A stretch of DNA of 64,000 bases from a virus, in IMG/VR virus record IMGVR_UViG_3300037322_000296, positions 1-64,000 of that record. One strand, written 5' to 3'. Of the stretch, positions 763 through 64,000 are shown one piece after another (position 1 is the first letter of the stretch; the number at the start of each line of letters is the position of its first letter). The notes below the pieces were generated by a model, which saw nothing but the letters and a program-made list of their open reading frames with translations, was not told where the DNA came from and did no database searches. A program made the position numbers and the translations under genes.

Positions 763-1224
763 ATGAAAAAATTAAAACTATCAAAATGCGATTTGCCTCT
801 TTTAAATGGTAAAAAAATAACTTTAGATAAAAGCACTGGTTATTATAGAATACTGTTAGGTAATAATAAATATATTTATTTGCATAGATATATAATGAAC
901 GCTAAAAAAGGCGATATTATAGACCATATCGACAGATATAAAAATAATAATCAAAGGTGTAATTTAAGATTTGTGACATTTTCAGAAAATAATTATAATA
1001 GAGAAGTTAAAAATAATTTAGGTAGAGGAATTTACTTTGATAAGTCAGGAAATAGATTTAGAGCTTGTATAAGTTTTAAAAATAAAACATTAAAGTTAGG
1101 CTCATTTAAAGATATTGAAAAAGCAAAGATAGCATACAATATAAAAGCAAAAGAAATTCACGGAGATTCAGCTTTTCAACATTTAATCATTACTGAAAAC
1201 GGAATTACATATCCTAAAATATAA
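763..1224 (+). CDS. HNH homing endonuclease with AP2-like DNA-binding domain
   Basis: 153 residues. The HNH core is visible as LHRYIMNAKKGDIIDHID, then NNQRCNLRFVTFSENNYNR (residues about 40-88), giving the His, Asn and His positions of the HNH_3 group. The C-terminal part (GIYFDKSGNRFRACISF...LGSFKDIEKAKIAYN) is an AP2/integrase-like three-stranded DNA-binding domain. Stand-alone genes of this type are selfish homing endonucleases. It separates the endolysin from the tail appendage genes and has its own promoter. Confidence 0.85.
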   Translation: MKKLKLSKCDLPLLNGKKITLDKSTGYYRILLGNNKYIYLHRYIMNAKKGDIIDHIDRYKNNNQRCNLRFVTFSENNYNREVKNNLGRGIYFDKSGNRFRACISFKNKTLKLGSFKDIEKAKIAYNIKAKEIHGDSAFQHLIITENGITYPKI

Positions 1225-3303: not shown

Positions 3304-3549
3304 ATGGCAAATAAAATTAGAAAATTATCAATTGGTGCGGAAATAAAAGAACGATTCCATTATATTGTAGAAGAAAGTAAAGCAGTCTATAACGCTACGA
3401 TAAATGGAAAACAAGACCGATTCAGTTTAGTAGCAATAGAAGAAACAGAAAATCATTTCCTTCTTTACTTAAAAAGCGGGGATGAAGTTCATCTTTGGAA
3501 GAAAGAACCTAAAAATGAATTTACAGCAATCGAATATTTTTTAGATTAA
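3304..3549 (+). CDS. Small hypothetical protein of the late region
   Basis: 81 residues, mostly predicted beta (KAVYNATINGKQDRFSLVAIEETENHFLLYLKSGDEVHLWKK). No family recognised. It is 10 bases after the appendage gene and 4 before the GroES-like gene, in one transcription unit that ends at the terminator near 4105. Confidence 0.6.
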   Translation: MANKIRKLSIGAEIKERFHYIVEESKAVYNATINGKQDRFSLVAIEETENHFLLYLKSGDEVHLWKKEPKNEFTAIEYFLD

Positions 3550-3553
3550 TACT

Positions 3554-4102
3554 ATGCGTTCACCATTCAAATTTATAATATCACCAATAAATAACGAGCA
3601 ATATGTTAATCAGATTGGTGGGTTAATAGTAAACACAAGCATAGAAGAAGCCGAAGATGTTCAAAGAATTGGAGAGGTAATATCTATTCCTTTTGGATAT
3701 ACAGGCTTTATTAAAATAGGAGATTTAGTTGTTGTTCAACATAATGTATTTAGAATAACTTTTAATGACCAAGGAGTTCCTATGCAGTCTGATAATCATA
3801 TTTTAGATAATAAATTTGGTGTAACTGCTGATATTATTTATATGGTAATTAGAAACGGAGAGAAAATGTCAAGCGATAATTATATTTTTGTAGAGCCTAT
3901 TGTAGAAGATGATTTTTGGACAGGAAAAAATACATTGAAAAACGAAGGAATTGCTAGATACATAAATCCAAAAATAGAAAGTCAAGGTGTTTCAAAAGGT
4001 TCAAGAATCTCTTTTGGCAACTATGGGAACTACTTATTTGAAATATTTGGAGAAAAACTATATATGATAAGGAATAAAAAAATAATGTCTGTATTAGGCT
4101 AA
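3554..4102 (+). CDS. Divergent GroES-like co-chaperonin with a long insertion
   Basis: 182 residues. The N-terminal part (FKFIISPINN...IGGLIVNT...IGEVISIPFGYTGFIKIGDLVVV, residues 4-63) follows the GroES beta-barrel order: first strand, mobile-loop hydrophobic GGLIV tripeptide, GEV strand, K-GD-V strand. After an insert, residues 131-182 (EGIARYI...VSKGSRISFGNYGNYLFEIFGEKLYMIRNKKIMSVLG) repeat the GroES second half including its closing xIMSVL strand. About twice the size of GroES, it recalls enlarged phage co-chaperonins such as T4 gp31. It ends the unit just before the terminase gene. Confidence 0.55.
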   Translation: MRSPFKFIISPINNEQYVNQIGGLIVNTSIEEAEDVQRIGEVISIPFGYTGFIKIGDLVVVQHNVFRITFNDQGVPMQSDNHILDNKFGVTADIIYMVIRNGEKMSSDNYIFVEPIVEDDFWTGKNTLKNEGIARYINPKIESQGVSKGSRISFGNYGNYLFEIFGEKLYMIRNKKIMSVLG

Positions 4103-4181: not shown

Positions 4182-6836
4182 ATGGTAGGATTAAGCTCAG
4201 ATATTGAAATCGCTATAAAGGATTCTATTGAAGGAATGAATCTAAGCGTTAATGTTTTAAACGTTGACGATGATAAATTAGAAAAATTGATGAAGTCAAG
4301 ATTAGATTCTTTTTCATCAATAAAACACATGATTAAACTTTGGCAAGAAAGTCCAAATTCTCCAAGTCAAGAAAAGCTACGTAGGTATTCAAAAGATTTA
4401 ATAAAGTCAGGAGAAAACTCTATTGATGTATTAAGACAAGCATTAAGAAAAAAAATATCTTTTAGTGAATTACACGCTGAACAATATGGTGCTGCAATTA
4501 AATCTAAACCAATTATATTTCGTGCTATAACCGAAATAAACTCAGGAGTAATATCTTTAAAACTCCAATTAGATGCAGGACTATTAGACTTTAAGGAAAG
4601 AGAATTTAAACGTTCGTTTCCTGAGAAATTTGCAAATCAAGAATTTTACCCAGAAAAAGACTATCATAAAGAGTGGTATGATGAGAAAAAAGATAGCGTA
4701 ATTCTTTGCCCTTTTGGAACTAAGGGTAATATGATAACGCTTGACGGACTTAACATTACATTGCCAATTCCTCCAAAAAACAAAGAAGATATTTTATTTA
4801 GCAATTTACCAATAGAAGAACAATATTGGAGAAGAATTGAATTGCCATCAGGACTAACTCTTGAGAACGAAGATATGTACTATGAGTTCATTATGAATGA
4901 ATTTAGACGAAGAAGGGAAGGAATATTTTTTATGAATAAAGGAGAAGTAGTTTACCTAACTCCTGCTCATTATATGGCTTTACAGCACGTAAAAATGCTT
5001 GACGATGGTTCGTATATGGATTTTAGATACGCACAATTAAATATGTTTTACTTTACAAAAGCTTGCGTACTTGACAAAAGATGTTTGGGCGAATTTTTTG
5101 TAAAATCCCGTAGAACAGGATTTACATACCAAATTATTTGTGAGATGATAAATGACGGAACAAGTATGTCAAATTCAAAATTCGGTATAATATCTAAAAC
5201 GGGAGATGATGCACAAGAAGCATTTCTTAAAATGACTTATGGTATTCAGAATTTACCGTTCTTTTTTATTCCTGTTGTTAAAGGAAAAATAGATAGCAAA
5301 ACCGAAGTTGAGTTTTCAAAACCTTCTGATTCAACCAAAATATCAAAAAAGAAAAAAGATAACAATACAGATGATTATCTTAATACACTAATGAATTGGA
5401 AAACTACTACTGAATCCGCTTATGATGGACAAAAAATGAAACGCTTGTTAGTTGATGAAGCATCAAAGCCATTACCACCATTTTCTTTAGAAACTTATTG
5501 GGGTAGGGTATCTCCAACTGTAGAAAATGGAGGAAGAATTGTGGGTAAAATATATGTAGGAAGTACCGTAAACCCAATGAAGTCAGGTGGATTAGCTTTC
5601 TTAAAAATGTATAAAGGCTCAATTGTTTCTAAGCGAGATGTACACACTAAAAGAACTGCAACAGGATTATACGCATACTTTCTTCCGGCACATCTAAATA
5701 TGGAATTATTTACAGACAGATATGGTGTTTGTCATACAGTAGTTATTCCTGGTGATTATTTTATAAATGTTTATGGAGATAAAATATACGAAGGTTCAAT
5801 TCAATTTTTAGAAAACAAAAGACGTTCAAAAAGGAAACAATCTGATATTCTTTACAATGAGGAATTACGAGCTTTTCCTATGACCATAGAAGAAGCCTTT
5901 AGAGATGAAAGTAAAGGAAGTTTATTTAACTTAGAAAAGATAAACGATCAAGTTTCTTACAACGACAGCGGAAATATAGAAGACACAATAGTTCGAGGTA
6001 ATTTTGAATGGGAAGGTGGAATTAAAGATACTTTAGTTGTTTGGCGACCAAGTTCAAAAGGTAGATTTTTAATATCTTGGTTACCTCCAAAGGAAATGCA
6101 AAATAAATGGATTGAAAAAAATAACATTTTTGGTGGTAGAAGTAAGCATCCTATAAACGAAGATGTAGGTTGTTTTGGAGCAGATACTTACGATATTGAT
6201 TCTACAGCGGGAAGTAAATTAGAAAATACTGAAAATGGTTCTGAATATAATTTAGGTTCAAAAGGTGCAATTAGTGGAGTTACGAGTTTTTCAATGAAAA
6301 ATATTCCTAGTAATTTCTTCTTTTTAGAATACATAGCAAGACCACAATCGGCAGAGATATTTTTTGAAGATGCCTTAATGTGTTGCGTTTTTTACGGAAT
6401 GCCTATGTTGATAGAAAGTAATAAGGCTCGAATGCTTTATCACTTTAAAAACAGAGGGTATAGAGGGTTTTCACTTAGCAGGTTTGACAAAGAAACTAAC
6501 AGACTTTCTCCAACAGAAAAATTGCTTGGTGGAGTGCCTTCAAATAGTGCAGACGTAATATCTATGCATGCGTCTGCAATAGAAGCCTACATTAATAAAT
6601 ATGTTGGTTTTTATGAGCAAGGAGATGATTTATACCTAGTGCGAGAAGAAAATGAAATCGGTTCAATGCCGTTTAATAGAACTTTAAGAGATTGGGCGGG
6701 ATTTAACATCGGAAAACGTACAGACTTTGATATATCTATTGCTTCGGGGTATGCATTGATGGGTGTTAACAGAAAATCATACAAAGCGCAATTACCTACA
6801 AAACAACCAATTCAATTTAAGATTAGAACGTATTAA
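4182..6836 (+). CDS. terL: Terminase large subunit (DNA packaging ATPase/nuclease)
   Basis: 884 residues, within the size of crAss-like terminases. The ATPase P-loop is the variant KSRRTGFTY near residue 307. Walker B is RLLVDEA near residue 420. An acidic nuclease-type motif follows at GCFGADTYDID near residue 664. It pumps DNA into the prohead and cuts it. No small-terminase gene is adjacent. It has its own -7 box and precedes the portal gene, the usual order. Confidence 0.85.
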   Translation: MVGLSSDIEIAIKDSIEGMNLSVNVLNVDDDKLEKLMKSRLDSFSSIKHMIKLWQESPNSPSQEKLRRYSKDLIKSGENSIDVLRQALRKKISFSELHAEQYGAAIKSKPIIFRAITEINSGVISLKLQLDAGLLDFKEREFKRSFPEKFANQEFYPEKDYHKEWYDEKKDSVILCPFGTKGNMITLDGLNITLPIPPKNKEDILFSNLPIEEQYWRRIELPSGLTLENEDMYYEFIMNEFRRRREGIFFMNKGEVVYLTPAHYMALQHVKMLDDGSYMDFRYAQLNMFYFTKACVLDKRCLGEFFVKSRRTGFTYQIICEMINDGTSMSNSKFGIISKTGDDAQEAFLKMTYGIQNLPFFFIPVVKGKIDSKTEVEFSKPSDSTKISKKKKDNNTDDYLNTLMNWKTTTESAYDGQKMKRLLVDEASKPLPPFSLETYWGRVSPTVENGGRIVGKIYVGSTVNPMKSGGLAFLKMYKGSIVSKRDVHTKRTATGLYAYFLPAHLNMELFTDRYGVCHTVVIPGDYFINVYGDKIYEGSIQFLENKRRSKRKQSDILYNEELRAFPMTIEEAFRDESKGSLFNLEKINDQVSYNDSGNIEDTIVRGNFEWEGGIKDTLVVWRPSSKGRFLISWLPPKEMQNKWIEKNNIFGGRSKHPINEDVGCFGADTYDIDSTAGSKLENTENGSEYNLGSKGAISGVTSFSMKNIPSNFFFLEYIARPQSAEIFFEDALMCCVFYGMPMLIESNKARMLYHFKNRGYRGFSLSRFDKETNRLSPTEKLLGGVPSNSADVISMHASAIEAYINKYVGFYEQGDDLYLVREENEIGSMPFNRTLRDWAGFNIGKRTDFDISIASGYALMGVNRKSYKAQLPTKQPIQFKIRTY

Positions 6837-6906: not shown

Positions 6907-9342
6907 ATGGATAACCAAAATAAGACTTTAGAGATTTCTCCAACTATAATGTTTCCTAGCCAATTAGATTCTTTTGAAAATAAAAAAAAGAAAGCTTGGG
7001 GATTAAGATTGGCGCAAACGATTGTTAGTGATTGGTTTTACGGAAAAAATATTACCGATAACTCAATGTCTAAGTTTTTTACACAACGTAATGAATTTAT
7101 AGAACGTAGGCTGTATGCAAAAGGATTGCAATCTATGGACAAATATAAAGAATCATTTACTTCAGATGGAGATAAATCTTTCTTAAATCTTTCTACTAAG
7201 CCAATTAGTATTATTCCAAAAAATGTAAATATTATAGTTAACGGAATGTGCGACAGAGGTTATTCTATACGAGCAACCGCAATAGATGTTTTATCTACTA
7301 ACGAACGAATTGCTTATAGAAGAAGAATTGAAGACGATCAAAATACTAAAGACTTTATAATTGCTGCCAAAGAAAAATTAGGAATTGATGTTGGAAATAT
7401 GCCGGTTGAACAAATACCTGAATCAAAAGAGGAATTAGATTTACACATGCAATTGGAATACAAACAGTCAATAGAAATTTCAGAAGAATTAGCTATTGAC
7501 CATACAATGAAAGAAAACTTTTTTGAAGAGATAATTGACAGAACTATTAAAACTGATTTAACTATTTTAGGTGTTGCATGGGTTAAGCATAAGTTTTGTA
7601 AAGAAAAAGGAATAGTTTTAGAATCGGTAAATCCCGAAAATAAAATTCAATCGTATTCAGATGATAAATATTTTAGAGATTGTTTTTATCATGGTGAATA
7701 TAAAGTAGTTCCTATTAGCGAAGTTTTAGTAGAATTTCAATGGTTAAATGAAGAAGAACACGCAGAAGAAAGAAAACAATTAGAAAGTTCTGCAACTCAA
7801 TGGTGGGATTATAATAGAATTACAGAAAACGAAAGGATAAAAGGAACGGTTAATTTATTGTATTTTACCTACAAAACTACTCGTGATAAAGTAAAAAAAG
7901 TAATTGATACTGAAACGGGCGGAAAAGAAGTTGGCGAATTTACCGAAGGGAAAAACAAGAAAAAAGACTTTAGAAAATATAAAACTGTTACAAGAACAGA
8001 AGAGGTATTGATGGAAGGAGTACTTGTTTTAGGCACTAATATTCTTTTAAAGTGGGAACTTTCTGAGAATATGTCAAGACCTAAATCAAACAAACAAAAA
8101 GTAATTGACCAATATATAGGAGTTGCTCCTGAGAAAGAAAAAGGCTACATAGATTCTTCAGTAGCTAGAATGATTCCAATAGAAGATAAATTAAACGTTT
8201 TAGAGTTAAAAGCCGAACAAATAATTCAAGCAATTCAACCAGACGGTTTTATTATCGATCCAGATTCAATGGCGGAATTAGACATGGGTGGTGGAAATAT
8301 ATTAACTGTTCAAAACCAAATGGATATGTTTTGGCAAACAGGTAGTGTTTTTGCTAGAAGTTACGGAGCTAATGGCGATCCAATTTACTCAAAACCAATT
8401 AGCGAATTAAGAACAGGAGATTCTTTAAATAAATTACAAGCCTTACGTAACGAAAGAGAAGGCTATATGAATTTAATGCGTGATGTTGTAGGCTTAAACA
8501 AGGCTTCTGATGCATCAACTCCTGATAAAGAATCTTTAGTAGGAATACAAAAATTAGCGGCTTTAAGTAGCAACATGGCGACTAGGCATATTTTAGATGG
8601 TGCTTGTTTTATGACTAAATTATTGGCTCAAGGAATTAGTTACAGACTTGCCGACTTGCTTAAATACTCAGATTTAAAAGAAGACCTTGCTAGAATAATT
8701 GGAGCAACAGCCGTAGCTGATTTAGAAGAAATTAAGTCATTACATTTATACGATTTTGGTATCCATTTAGATTTACATTTAGACCACGAAGAAAAAGCTA
8801 AATTAGAAATAGATTTATCAAACGAAATCGCAAATAAAACTTTGAGTTTTTCTGACAAGTATAAAATTTTGTCTATTCCTAACTTTAAGTATGCGGTAAA
8901 TTACGCTTCTATTCTGCGTGAGAAAAGAATGAAAGAAATAGAAAAGTCTGAGATGGCTAAAATACAAGCAAATACAGAATCACAATCTGCAATATCTCAA
9001 AACGCAGAAGCTTCAAAGCAACAAACCGCTCAAATTATTGGAAATATAGAAATGCAAAAACAAGCAATGATTAATGAAGGCTTGATTGCAAAAGAAAGAA
9101 TTAAGGCAGAAGAAGAAAGACTTACTTTACAAACTAAATTTAATGGAGATTATCAAATAGCCAATTTAAACGCAAGTTCTCAATCTAACAAGGTAAACAT
9201 CATAGAAGACAGAAAAGATGAAAGAGGCGTTGCTGAAGCCACAAGAGATTCTAAAAAAATAAAGCAAAGACAATCTGACGGAGAACCGATTGATTTTGAA
9301 TCAGAAGAGCAACAAAACAGAATTTTTGAATTAGAAGATTAA
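6907..9342 (+). CDS. Portal protein
   Basis: 811 residues, identified by position right after terL, length (crAss-like portals are about 800) and composition. There is a mixed alpha/beta core (residues about 150-560) with an ARMIPIEDKLNVLELKAEQIIQAI segment typical of portal stems. A long charged coiled-coil C-terminus (about 670-811, rich in E, K and Q) may reach into the capsid. It would form the dodecameric DNA gate and bind terminase and neck. Confidence 0.75.
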   Translation: MDNQNKTLEISPTIMFPSQLDSFENKKKKAWGLRLAQTIVSDWFYGKNITDNSMSKFFTQRNEFIERRLYAKGLQSMDKYKESFTSDGDKSFLNLSTKPISIIPKNVNIIVNGMCDRGYSIRATAIDVLSTNERIAYRRRIEDDQNTKDFIIAAKEKLGIDVGNMPVEQIPESKEELDLHMQLEYKQSIEISEELAIDHTMKENFFEEIIDRTIKTDLTILGVAWVKHKFCKEKGIVLESVNPENKIQSYSDDKYFRDCFYHGEYKVVPISEVLVEFQWLNEEEHAEERKQLESSATQWWDYNRITENERIKGTVNLLYFTYKTTRDKVKKVIDTETGGKEVGEFTEGKNKKKDFRKYKTVTRTEEVLMEGVLVLGTNILLKWELSENMSRPKSNKQKVIDQYIGVAPEKEKGYIDSSVARMIPIEDKLNVLELKAEQIIQAIQPDGFIIDPDSMAELDMGGGNILTVQNQMDMFWQTGSVFARSYGANGDPIYSKPISELRTGDSLNKLQALRNEREGYMNLMRDVVGLNKASDASTPDKESLVGIQKLAALSSNMATRHILDGACFMTKLLAQGISYRLADLLKYSDLKEDLARIIGATAVADLEEIKSLHLYDFGIHLDLHLDHEEKAKLEIDLSNEIANKTLSFSDKYKILSIPNFKYAVNYASILREKRMKEIEKSEMAKIQANTESQSAISQNAEASKQQTAQIIGNIEMQKQAMINEGLIAKERIKAEEERLTLQTKFNGDYQIANLNASSQSNKVNIIEDRKDERGVAEATRDSKKIKQRQSDGEPIDFESEEQQNRIFELED

Positions 9343-11044: not shown

Positions 11045-12355
11045 ATGGCATTACAAGCTATTCCAGGAGTACAATATACTCCATCTCCAACCAAAGTTCC
11101 TACTCCACAGAATTATATTTCTAATTCTGAGTACAACTTACTAACTCAGTACATTCCTGAATTAGAAGCTCAAATTTCCGATGGTTACGGATCACAAATG
11201 GTTACAGGTATGATTGCTGCATTAGGAAAAGAATCTCCTTTCCAAGCAGATTTAATCAAATGGAACGAAGAAGGTCGTCTTGACCAATTAGCAACAGGTG
11301 TTGCTCGTACAGGTAATGTATTTACAACTGCTGCCCATACTTTTAGAGAAAATGACACAATTGTAGTAAGAGATGCGGCAGGTGCTGTATTAAGAAAAGG
11401 ACAAGTTACTGCGACTACAACAGGTGGATTTACTGCATTATGTGGTAATGACTTGGGTTGGACTTTAGTAGGAACTACAGGTTTAGTAGTTTATACTTTC
11501 AGTAATGAGTACGCAAAAGGTTCTGAGTTTGTTGGCGGTGGTTTAACTAGCCAAGTAAAGCAGTACACTCAAAAGCCAATTATTATTAGAGAAATAATTG
11601 AAGAAAGTCGCTCAAACTTAGCTTTAAGAACATGGGTTGATACAGGTTCAGGTTTCTTATGGTACTTTAAAAATCTTGAAGACACTAAAAAACGTTTTGA
11701 CAACAAAATTGAAAACCAACTTATCTTAGGAGAAAATTGGGGTGGAGATTTGGCTGCTGCTGGAGTTCAAGGTTCTGAAGGTTTATTTGCTGCTGCTGAA
11801 GAAGGAAATGTATTTGCAGGTCCTGTTGTAGATTTGAACGATAGAGATGAATTGATTGACAGATTAAACGCTCAAGGTCATATCTCTGAGAACTATGAAT
11901 ATGCCACTTCTGCTCAAAACAGATTAACGGACAGAATGCTTCAAGCAGAAAACGTTACAGGTTCTTCTTGGGGTGCATTTGACAACAAGGAAACAGGTAT
12001 TAAATTAGGGTTTAAAGATTTTAATTATGGAAACTACAATTTCTATAAGTCTAATTGGAGATTCTTAGACCACGTTACAGGAGAAGGTTCTGCGGTAGGA
12101 GCTACTAAAGTTCATGGTATTTTAATTCCGTCTGCATCTAAAAAGGTGTACGACATAATGGAAGGAAAAGAAGCAACTGTTCCAATGTTACACGTTAAGT
12201 ATCGTGCATCTCAATCAGTTAATCGTAAGTACGAAATGACTGTTAGAGATTGGGCAACAGGTACGAACAGAAAAGATGTTAGAGAAACTGAATTCTTAAC
12301 AGAAAAAGCCTTAATGGTTTCAGGAAGAAACAATCTTGTTATCTACAAAGGATAA
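11045..12355 (+). CDS. Major capsid protein
   Basis: 436 residues. The codon choice is more conservative here, as in highly expressed genes, and a strong isolated terminator follows. The N-terminal arm (to about 60) leads into QADLIKWNEEGRLDQL, resembling the corresponding stretch of crAss-like capsid proteins. A beta-rich inserted part (residues about 95-160) and a C-terminal part ending in a beta strand follow. Order portal-scaffold-capsid and size support an HK97-fold capsid subunit. Confidence 0.75.
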   Translation: MALQAIPGVQYTPSPTKVPTPQNYISNSEYNLLTQYIPELEAQISDGYGSQMVTGMIAALGKESPFQADLIKWNEEGRLDQLATGVARTGNVFTTAAHTFRENDTIVVRDAAGAVLRKGQVTATTTGGFTALCGNDLGWTLVGTTGLVVYTFSNEYAKGSEFVGGGLTSQVKQYTQKPIIIREIIEESRSNLALRTWVDTGSGFLWYFKNLEDTKKRFDNKIENQLILGENWGGDLAAAGVQGSEGLFAAAEEGNVFAGPVVDLNDRDELIDRLNAQGHISENYEYATSAQNRLTDRMLQAENVTGSSWGAFDNKETGIKLGFKDFNYGNYNFYKSNWRFLDHVTGEGSAVGATKVHGILIPSASKKVYDIMEGKEATVPMLHVKYRASQSVNRKYEMTVRDWATGTNRKDVRETEFLTEKALMVSGRNNLVIYKG

Positions 12356-61682: not shown

Positions 61683-63230
61683 ATGAGAGAGAGAATCTTA
61701 AAAGACATTACTTCAAAAGAGGATGCCAAAAAACTTTTAATGTCAGGAATTGACAAGGTAGCAGATGTTGTTTCTTCTACTTTTGGGTATCGTGGAAGAA
61801 CGGTACTTATAGAATCTGATTACGGTATGCCCGAACCTACAAAAGATGGTTATAAAACACTTCAATCAATATTTTTAGAGGATGCAGTTGAAAATATTGC
61901 TTGTGAAATTGCAAAACAAGCATCTCAAAAAACAGTTGATTTTGCAGGAGATGCTACAACTTCAACTATAATACTTTTACAAGCGTTTTTTAAACTTTCT
62001 ATTCAAGCGTTAGAAAACGGAACATCTCCAATAGATATAAAGTATCAAATAGAGAAATCAAGAGATTTAATACTAGAACATCTTGATAAAATATCTACTC
62101 CAATAACGAATAAGCTAATTTACGATGTTGCTTTTACATCGGCAAATGGAGAAAAAGAAATCGCAGATATTGTTTCAGATGCATTTATAAAATCAGGGGA
62201 AGATGGTTCTGTGGCACATTTCCGAAGCAATACAGACGAAACTTATTTAGAATTTATTGAAGGTACTCTTTTGGAATCAGGATATGTAGACGAAAGATTT
62301 ACAAACGTTTTTTCTGACAGAACTTGCGTTTTTGATAATAATCCTTTGGTTATTTGCTCTACAATAGAGTTTAAAACAACAAGACAGATTTTACCTTTTA
62401 TGAAGTATGCACACGTAAATAAAAGACCATTGGTTATTATTTCAGAAGTTGCTCCAAACGTAAGAGATGTTGTTTTACAGAATGTACTTGAAAATAATGT
62501 ACCTTTTGTGGTTGTAAACGCTCCAAGTTTCGGTAAAAAAAGAATTGACTTTCTAAATGACTTAGCGGTTTTGTGTAATACGCAGGTTATAAACACATTA
62601 TCGGGAGATGATTTTGAAGGTAGAGAACATTTGTTTTTAGGAGAATGTAAGAAAATAATTGTAGGAAAAACAGACACAATTATTACTCCTATGAAAACTT
62701 CTGATATTCAAGAAGTTGTAGATAGTAAAATTGCAGAGATAAAAACTATTATTGAAACCACTAAGAATACTGCGGAGAAAAAATACTTACGTGAGAGAAT
62801 TTCTAAGTTGTTTGGTGGTGTTTCAATTATTAAAGTTGGCTCTATTATAGAATCGGAATTACAAGAGAAAATAGATAGAGTAGACGATGCGGTTTGTGCA
62901 GTAAGAAGTGCGAAAGAAGAAGGAGTTTTAGCAGGTGGAGCTTCTGCATTATATAATTCTGCAAGACTTGATTTAGATCCAATCACAAAAATTGTAGTAG
63001 TAGCTCCTTTGAATAAACTATTAGAAAACGCTTCAATTACAGAAAATATAAACTTAGGAGAATACCCAATGGGATATGACTTAAAAGAATTTAAAGAAGT
63101 AAATATGTTTGATGCGGGAATTGTAGATAGCACAAAAGCAATCAAGTATGCGTTAATTAACGCAGTCGCAGCAAGCAACACTTTGCTCTTAACCAACACA
63201 GTATTAACCAACCAAAGAATCATTACATAA
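61683..63230 (+). CDS. groEL: GroEL-like chaperonin (phage-encoded)
   Basis: 515 residues, slightly shorter than bacterial GroEL (about 545) and lacking the Gly-Gly-Met tail. Visible equivalents: GYRGRTVLIES (nucleotide-site start, where the usual Asp is Glu), KTVDFAGDATTSTI at about 83-96 (the GDGTTT motif, with Gly changed to Ala), FGKKRIDFLNDLAVL and RVDDAVCAVRSAKEEGVLAGGASAL (catalytic Asp kept). It probably folds a phage virion protein. Such changes suggest altered ATP turnover. It overlaps the GroES-like gene by one base. Confidence 0.85.
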   Translation: MRERILKDITSKEDAKKLLMSGIDKVADVVSSTFGYRGRTVLIESDYGMPEPTKDGYKTLQSIFLEDAVENIACEIAKQASQKTVDFAGDATTSTIILLQAFFKLSIQALENGTSPIDIKYQIEKSRDLILEHLDKISTPITNKLIYDVAFTSANGEKEIADIVSDAFIKSGEDGSVAHFRSNTDETYLEFIEGTLLESGYVDERFTNVFSDRTCVFDNNPLVICSTIEFKTTRQILPFMKYAHVNKRPLVIISEVAPNVRDVVLQNVLENNVPFVVVNAPSFGKKRIDFLNDLAVLCNTQVINTLSGDDFEGREHLFLGECKKIIVGKTDTIITPMKTSDIQEVVDSKIAEIKTIIETTKNTAEKKYLRERISKLFGGVSIIKVGSIIESELQEKIDRVDDAVCAVRSAKEEGVLAGGASALYNSARLDLDPITKIVVVAPLNKLLENASITENINLGEYPMGYDLKEFKEVNMFDAGIVDSTKAIKYALINAVAASNTLLLTNTVLTNQRIIT

Positions 63231-63535
63231 TGGATAGTATAAACAAAAAAATAGTAGATTCTTTCAAAGGTCAAGCCTTAAATTTTGTAGTTGTTTTAAA
63301 AGAAATAGAAAACAAAAACGAAACCGAATCTGGATTAAATATTAGTTCAGATGTTGACAAAAACGAGAAGTATAAAAAAGCAATCGTAGTTTCTATTGGA
63401 ACAGAGTGTCCAAAAGACGATATAAAGACGGGAGATATTGTGATTTACGACAAATACAAAGCAAGTTCGTTTACACAAAACGCAATAGAATTCACAACTT
63501 TATATTACGCAGACCTTATTTGGGTTTCTGAGTAA
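63230..63535 (+). CDS. groES: GroES-like co-chaperonin
   Basis: 101 residues, near the normal GroES size. ESGLNISSDVDKNEKYKKAIVVSIG aligns with the mobile loop (hydrophobic GLNI) and the GEVVAVG strand. IKTGDIVIYDKYKASSFTQNAIEFTTLYYADLIWV is the KxGDxV...Y strand set. It shares its first base with the GroEL-like stop codon, so it is translated with it. Confidence 0.75.
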   Translation: MDSINKKIVDSFKGQALNFVVVLKEIENKNETESGLNISSDVDKNEKYKKAIVVSIGTECPKDDIKTGDIVIYDKYKASSFTQNAIEFTTLYYADLIWVSE

Positions 63536-63617: not shown

Positions 63618-64000
63618 GTGATTTCAATCAACTACATACGTAACGCTACATTGTTTATCCTAAATAAGTCAAATCTTGGGTATATTGGAGTAGATGAATT
63701 TAACATATTTTGCGGATTAGCGCAACAAGATATTTTTGAAAACCTTTTTTTTCAATACAATCAATTTGTAAATAGACAAAACAAAAGATTAACAGGTACA
63801 GACTATGCTGATTTACCCAAAAACCTTAGGGAACAAATTGATGTTTTTGCAGAATATACATTACCGACTAATTTTACTTACCAATCATCTACGAATACTT
63901 GGAATTATATAGAAAGCGACCTTTACAGAGTAGAAAATCTTTCTTTAGTAAAAACATCTACAAATAAAAAAATAGACGTTGAAGAAGTGAATAAACGTCA
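63618..64000 (+). CDS. Virion structural protein, N-terminal part (cut by the window end)
   Basis: Starts at GTG after the -7 box, and the frame is open to the last base (127 codons seen). ISINYIRNATLFILNKSNLGYIGVDEFNIFCGLAQQDIF is the helix-strand pattern of small tail/neck adaptor proteins in Bacteroidota phages. No full-length comparison is possible. Confidence 0.55.
   Translation, partial: MISINYIRNATLFILNKSNLGYIGVDEFNIFCGLAQQDIFENLFFQYNQFVNRQNKRLTGTDYADLPKNLREQIDVFAEYTLPTNFTYQSSTNTWNYIESDLYRVENLSLVKTSTNKKIDVEEVNKR

What the first reader, a model, noticed from the sequence alone, without database searches (positions are those of the whole stretch)
3554..4102. Second, oversized GroES-like protein beside the packaging genes
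The 182-residue protein shows the GroES strand order twice over (GGLIV mobile-loop type motif, K-GD-V strand, and a C-terminal block ending IMSVL) with a long insert. A normal-sized GroES-like gene is paired with GroEL at 63.2 kb. Two different co-chaperonins in one phage, one next to terminase, would be unusual. One may work with the host GroEL and the other with the phage GroEL, or one may have become structural.
Basis: inference. Interest (0 to 1): 0.72.

Follow-up and report, generated by a model that had tools for sequence, protein, structure and literature searches.

The report
Two-in-one GroES lid protein in phages
Next to its DNA-packaging genes this phage carries a protein made of two GroES-like "lid" domains fused in a row, like the Cpn20 lid of chloroplasts; it is conserved across many marine phages together with an ordinary GroES, so the phage probably builds its own lid for the protein-folding cage that helps make virus particles.

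Summary
The 182-residue protein at 3554-4102 is two complete Cpn10/GroES domains head to tail, not one domain with a long insert. It belongs to a catalogued family (PHROG 13932). AlphaFold2 gives a confident model (pLDDT 85.6) whose best PDB fold match is the two-domain chloroplast Cpn20. The N-terminal domain keeps a disordered, conserved GroEL-binding mobile loop. In the C-terminal domain a short ordered hairpin stands in that place. Having two co-chaperonins is not unusual in this phage group: 27 of 28 long records with the tandem gene also carry a separate single-domain GroES (the exception is a cut contig), and 25 carry GroEL. Three GroEL-less genomes, two of them cultured, still keep both lid proteins. 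Published virion proteomics annotation of two relatives does not list the tandem protein as structural. Best explanation: a phage Cpn20-type lid subunit, made with the late virion genes. It probably joins the single GroES in a mixed ring (3 x 2 + 1 = 7 domains) on phage or host GroEL to fold virion proteins. The fold, conservation and gene order are shown; the mixed ring and the clients are inferred.

The parts
3554..4102 (+). tandem (Cpn20-type) co-chaperonin gene, 182 aa
   Evidence: PHROG 13932 full length E 3.8e-18; AF2 model pLDDT 85.6, pTM 0.80; top PDB fold match 7ekq_R, E 4.6e-5, named 'Cpn20 co-chaperonin subunit'
3554..3865 (+). N-terminal Cpn10 domain, residues 1 to about 104
   Evidence: PHROG 3188 GroES match at residues 19-63; strands in the AF2 model
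3605..3658 (+). mobile loop of the N-terminal domain, residues 18-35 (contains GGLIVNTSIEE)
   Evidence: pLDDT < 50 at 18-22 and 26-35; positions 24-25 hydrophobic in 98-100% of 62 representatives, E31 invariant, S29 and R38 nearly so
3866..4099 (+). C-terminal Cpn10 domain, residues 105-182
   Evidence: Pfam Cpn10 residues 141-180, weak, E 0.043; family profile search hits PDB GroES, E 0.002; relatives above the Pfam cut-off
3881..3961 (+). ordered beta hairpin in place of a second mobile loop, residues 110-136
   Evidence: strands 110-120 and 124-136 at block pLDDT 88-96; no conserved hydrophobic triad
3304..3549 (+). small upstream gene, 81 aa, conserved neighbour of unknown function
   Evidence: found in 56 loci; small ORF in the same position in named phages
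4182..6836 (+). terminase large subunit
   Evidence: PHROG 6681 E 8.6e-147; found within 1.3 kb downstream in 149 of 189 family loci
6907..9342 (+). portal protein
   Evidence: PHROG 6547 E 1.6e-97
11045..12355 (+). virion structural protein (probable major capsid protein)
   Evidence: PHROG 13704 E 5.2e-86; homologue annotated as structural by MS/MS in phi40:1
61683..63230 (+). phage GroEL, 515 aa
   Evidence: PHROG 5725 E 1.8e-102; Pfam Cpn60 E 2.2e-34
63230..63535 (+). single-domain phage GroES, 101 aa, overlapping the GroEL stop
   Evidence: Pfam Cpn10 40.2 bits, above the cut-off

Best explanation
The gene encodes a Cpn20-type co-chaperonin: two GroES/Cpn10 domains joined head to tail. 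It is made with the late head and packaging genes. As a lid subunit it binds a GroEL ring mainly through the mobile loop of its first domain; the second domain mostly completes the ring wall. Seven Cpn10 domains are needed to match a GroEL ring and an all-tandem lid gives an even number. The most likely working form is therefore a mixed ring with the phage's single-domain GroES (three tandem plus one single = seven domains), as proposed for chloroplast Cpn20/Cpn10. It caps the phage GroEL, or host GroEL in relatives that lack their own, and helps fold abundant virion proteins. Shown here: the two-domain fold (predicted), the one-loop asymmetry in the model, the conserved gene trio and the gene order. 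Inferred: ring make-up, which GroEL it binds, and the clients. I put co-chaperonin function at about 0.8 and the mixed ring at about 0.45.
For: All 60 representatives match PHROG 13932 'co-chaperonin GroES', and 28 also match the ordinary GroES PHROG. The AF2 models of the window protein and of phi38:1's homologue both have 7ekq_R as top PDB match, a Cpn20 subunit, followed by GroES chains. The N-domain mobile loop is disordered and its hydrophobic pair is conserved. Single GroES is present in 27 of 28 long records that carry the tandem gene, and GroEL in 25 of 28. phi18:3, phi46:3 and G013 keep single plus tandem without GroEL. Terminase follows in 149 of 189 loci, and nearly all of the rest are contigs that end nearby. 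The protein is not in the MS/MS-annotated virion sets of phi40:1 and phi18:3. Chloroplast precedent for mixed Cpn10/Cpn20 rings: PMC5780408. Purifying selection.
Against: No complex could be modelled or measured. The C-domain match to Pfam Cpn10 is below the curated cut-off in the window protein, and the N half versus the C half shows no useful profile similarity. Published work cited in PMC5780408 shows that lids of six or eight domains can work, so a mixed ring is not obligatory. The single and tandem genes are about 59 kb apart in this record (closer only if the genome is circular, which is not shown), so co-expression is not shown.
Confidence: 0.72

Rival explanations
1. The tandem protein works alone: a homo-oligomeric lid of three or four copies, specialised for large virion clients, while the single GroES serves general folding with phage GroEL.
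For: Separate location and probably separate timing: the tandem gene is in the head module and the single GroES overlaps or follows GroEL. Purified chloroplast Cpn20 tetramers and the Plasmodium Cpn20 work without Cpn10 (PMC5780408, PMC5904260).
Against: The single GroES is kept even where GroEL is absent, so it is not simply the GroEL partner. The second mobile loop is lost in the window protein, leaving few GroEL contacts for an all-tandem lid.
Confidence: 0.25
2. It has left the chaperonin cycle and become a head, portal or packaging assembly factor (or minor virion protein) that uses the Cpn10 ring as a structural ring.
For: Fixed position directly before terminase and portal across very different phages. 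One mobile loop is lost in part of the family.
Against: The homologues carry no MS/MS 'structural protein' annotation in phi40:1 and phi18:3, unlike many of the neighbouring head genes. The GroEL-binding loop of domain 1 is conserved and predicted disordered, as in working GroES.
Confidence: 0.15
3. A phage modulator that caps host GroEL to redirect it to phage clients, as a gp31-like replacement of host GroES.
For: phi18:3, phi46:3 and G013 have no GroEL of their own yet keep the protein. T4 gp31 is among the fold matches (rank 28).
Against: Most members live with their own GroEL (25 of 28), and two lids rather than one are kept.
Confidence: 0.2

Closest known systems
PHROG 13932 'co-chaperonin GroES' (Elemovirus, Callevirus phi38:1/phi40:1/Calle, Maribacter phage Panino, ctfjg026; distant: phi18:3 gp096)
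   Same: Full-length match, same size, same place before terminase; this is the family it belongs to.
   Different: Only about 28-41% identical to the named phages. Database names do not say that it is two domains, and the C-domain loop differs between groups (phi18:3 keeps a longer one).
Chloroplast Cpn20 (PDB 7ekq chains R and Q)
   Same: Two Cpn10 domains head to tail; found together with a single-domain Cpn10; top fold match.
   Different: About 11-16% identity, so no close relationship is shown; phage origin; second mobile loop replaced by a hairpin in the window protein.
GroES / Cpn10 (Pfam PF00166)
   Same: Each half has the Cpn10 strand order; GroES chains are the next fold matches.
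   Different: Twice the length; window protein below the Pfam gathering score.
T4 gp31 co-chaperonin (PDB 1g31)
   Same: Phage-made lid for a chaperonin that folds virion protein (known for gp31; inferred here); weak fold match.
   Different: Single domain, works on host GroEL; no such fusion.

Membership tests
PHROG 13932 (phage tandem co-chaperonin) | Full-length profile match | tested here: met
   E 3.8e-18, residues 1-180 to profile 1-198 of 200; all 60 representatives match
PHROG 13932 (phage tandem co-chaperonin) | Position directly upstream of terminase large subunit | tested here: met
   Window; 149 of 189 loci; named phages
Cpn20-type co-chaperonin | Two Cpn10 barrels in one chain | tested here: met
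   AF2 model pLDDT 85.6; top match 7ekq_R over 202 columns, TM 0.56
Cpn20-type co-chaperonin | A GroEL-binding mobile loop in each domain | tested here: not met
   Present in domain 1, replaced by an ordered hairpin in domain 2 of the window protein; so it is called Cpn20-like here, not a Cpn20
Cpn20-type co-chaperonin | Binds and caps GroEL/Cpn60 with nucleotide | not testable with these tools
   Needs purified proteins
Cpn10 / GroES (PF00166) | Score above the Pfam gathering threshold | tested here: not met
   14.3 bits against 21.1; relatives phi40:1 and phi18:3 pass (28.2 and 32.6 bits)
Virion structural protein | Found in purified particles | tested here: inconclusive
   Not annotated as structural by MS/MS in phi40:1 and phi18:3; no data for this phage

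The most novel reading that the evidence does not exclude
A large group of podoviruses of Flavobacteriia and their kin arrived at the chloroplast solution on their own: a seven-domain GroEL lid assembled from three tandem and one single co-chaperonin. The two lid genes are more strictly conserved than the phage GroEL itself, giving a virus-specific folding cage.
Probability: 0.4. Interest if true: 0.68.

Novelty: new variant of a known kind. Interest (0 to 1): 0.5.

Why it matters
Two-domain co-chaperonins are known mainly from plastids, where how an even number of domains fits a seven-fold ring is a discussed puzzle. A compact phage system with a GroEL, a single lid and a double lid, plus natural relatives without GroEL, would allow that question and the role of phage chaperonins in capsid folding to be tested directly. 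The gene family is already in databases as 'co-chaperonin GroES'. I found no paper in the searched library that describes its two-domain nature or the constant pairing.

Tried and rejected
Long insert inside one GroES domain: rejected, the model shows two barrels. Chance resemblance: rejected by the family match, fold match and purifying selection. Strict dependence on phage GroEL: rejected by phi18:3, phi46:3 and G013. A direct single-sequence PDB search gave only weak hits (E 0.3). Literature searches for a description in Flavobacterium/Cellulophaga phage papers found GroEL mentioned (Nishimura 2017, PMC5332604) and 'GroEL and GroES homologs' in Panino (PMC11590407), but no tandem lid. PMC7077304 mentions no chaperonins.

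Full report
What is there. The ORF at 3554-4102 (+, 182 aa) is as described. It lies between a conserved 81-aa gene (3304-3549) and the terminase large subunit (4182-6836), followed by portal and virion proteins. At the other end of the window a 515-aa GroEL (61683-63230) overlaps a 101-aa single-domain GroES (63230-63535). The window is part of a 67,084-base virus record.

What it is. hmmscan places the protein in PHROG 13932 'co-chaperonin GroES' (E 3.8e-18, full length), with a second match of its N half to the ordinary phage GroES family PHROG 3188 (E 3e-5). The C half matches Pfam Cpn10 weakly (E 0.043), and a family profile finds solved GroES chains with the C half (E 0.002). In relatives the C half passes the Pfam cut-off (phi40:1 28.2 bits, phi18:3 32.6 bits). 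AlphaFold2 with 60 aligned relatives gives pLDDT 85.6 and pTM 0.80. Foldseek's only PDB match below E 0.001 is 7ekq_R (E 4.6e-5, 202 columns), a chain named 'Cpn20 co-chaperonin subunit'; the next matches are GroES chains, and T4 gp31 also appears. A second model, of the phi38:1 homologue, gives the same top match and also 7ekq_Q. The TM-scores of about 0.56 with high rmsd show that the relative placing of the two domains differs or is uncertain. So the 'long insert' is a second Cpn10 domain.

Anatomy. In GroES the mobile loop grips GroEL (PMC5780408). In domain 1 the loop region (residues 18-35) holds the only stretches of the model below pLDDT 50. In 62 representatives its positions 24-25 are hydrophobic in 100% and 98%, E31 is invariant and S29 and R38 are nearly so. 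In domain 2 the same place holds a short ordered hairpin (residues 110-136) with no such triad. phi18:3 keeps a longer, loop-like segment in domain 2 (SLIYIPEDNKEK), and phi38:1 is intermediate (block pLDDT 69-79 at residues 121-140). Loss of the second loop thus appears to be graded in the family (inference from these sequences).

Surroundings and spread. Among 189 family genes pulled, a terminase lies within 1.3 kb downstream in 149, and nearly all the others sit on contigs that end nearby. One locus, L006, has the terminase inverted about 4 kb downstream. Named relatives are Flavobacterium Elemovirus, Cellulophaga Callevirus, Maribacter phage Panino and ctfjg026. phi18:3 (Pachyviridae) joins by profile (54.7 bits), and the gene two places downstream of its tandem gene is a terminase of the same family (665 bits). 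The gene is under purifying selection (dN/dS 0.06-0.14, dS near saturation).

The gene trio. I counted 28 records of about 49 kb or more that carry the tandem gene: 8, and phi18:3 plus phi46:3. Some are the same or nearly the same phage sampled more than once (for example phi38:1, phi40:1 and Calle_2, or the Elemovirus records), so they are not 28 independent events. A separate single-domain GroES is present in 27; the exception, G008, is cut within GroEL at its contig end. GroEL is present in 25. The three without are phi18:3 and phi46:3 (complete cultured genomes) and G013, a 72.8-kb contig whose ends share a 32-base repeat, as expected of a complete circular assembly. The pair of lids is therefore at least as conserved as the phage GroEL. 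GroEL in relatives of phi38:1 was already reported (Nishimura 2017, PMC5332604).

Virion or not. In phi40:1 most head genes downstream of the homologue gp089 carry 'structural protein, MS/MS' notes, but gp089 does not. In phi18:3 gp096 and the terminase likewise have none, while gp099, gp104 and gp112-115 do. Absence from a proteomics list is not proof, but it speaks against a major virion role.

Mechanism. GroEL rings have seven-fold symmetry. Chloroplasts pair a two-domain Cpn20 with a one-domain Cpn10, and the native lids there are thought to be mixed rings of seven-fold symmetry; lids of six or eight domains can also work in vitro (PMC5780408). The constant pairing of a tandem and a single lid gene in these phages suggests the same solution, with the tandem gene timed with the head genes. 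This step is inference. The clients (capsid, portal or others) are inferred from gene position and from T4 gp31, a precedent I take from general knowledge.

Novelty. The gene family is catalogued and named in databases, so this is not a new family. What seems undescribed, within the library searched, is that it is a Cpn20-like double lid with one apparent mobile loop, constantly paired with a single GroES. I score it as a new variant of a known kind with interest 0.5.

Noticed in passing
window 63618-64000, continuing to 64349 in the parent record (L256): A virion structural gene (homologue of phi40:1 gp095, MS/MS structural) sits directly after GroEL-GroES instead of in the head module, where relatives have it; the expected place (between 13434 and 13537) lacks it.
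   Followed up: partly
L261/L262 (phi18:3), KC821622 (phi46:3), G013 (L124, L251-L255): Three genomes with single plus tandem GroES but no GroEL, so both lids presumably work on host GroEL.
   Followed up: yes
KC821624 (phi14:2, crAss-like), 94977-96380: A phage GroEL with no Cpn10 match anywhere in the same genome, the opposite situation.
   Followed up: no
L006, 2455-12203: Terminase inverted and about 4 kb away from the tandem gene, unlike the other loci; rearrangement or assembly error.
   Followed up: no
window 763-1224: ORF with the look of an HNH homing endonuclease near the start of the window; judged by eye only, not tested.
   Followed up: no
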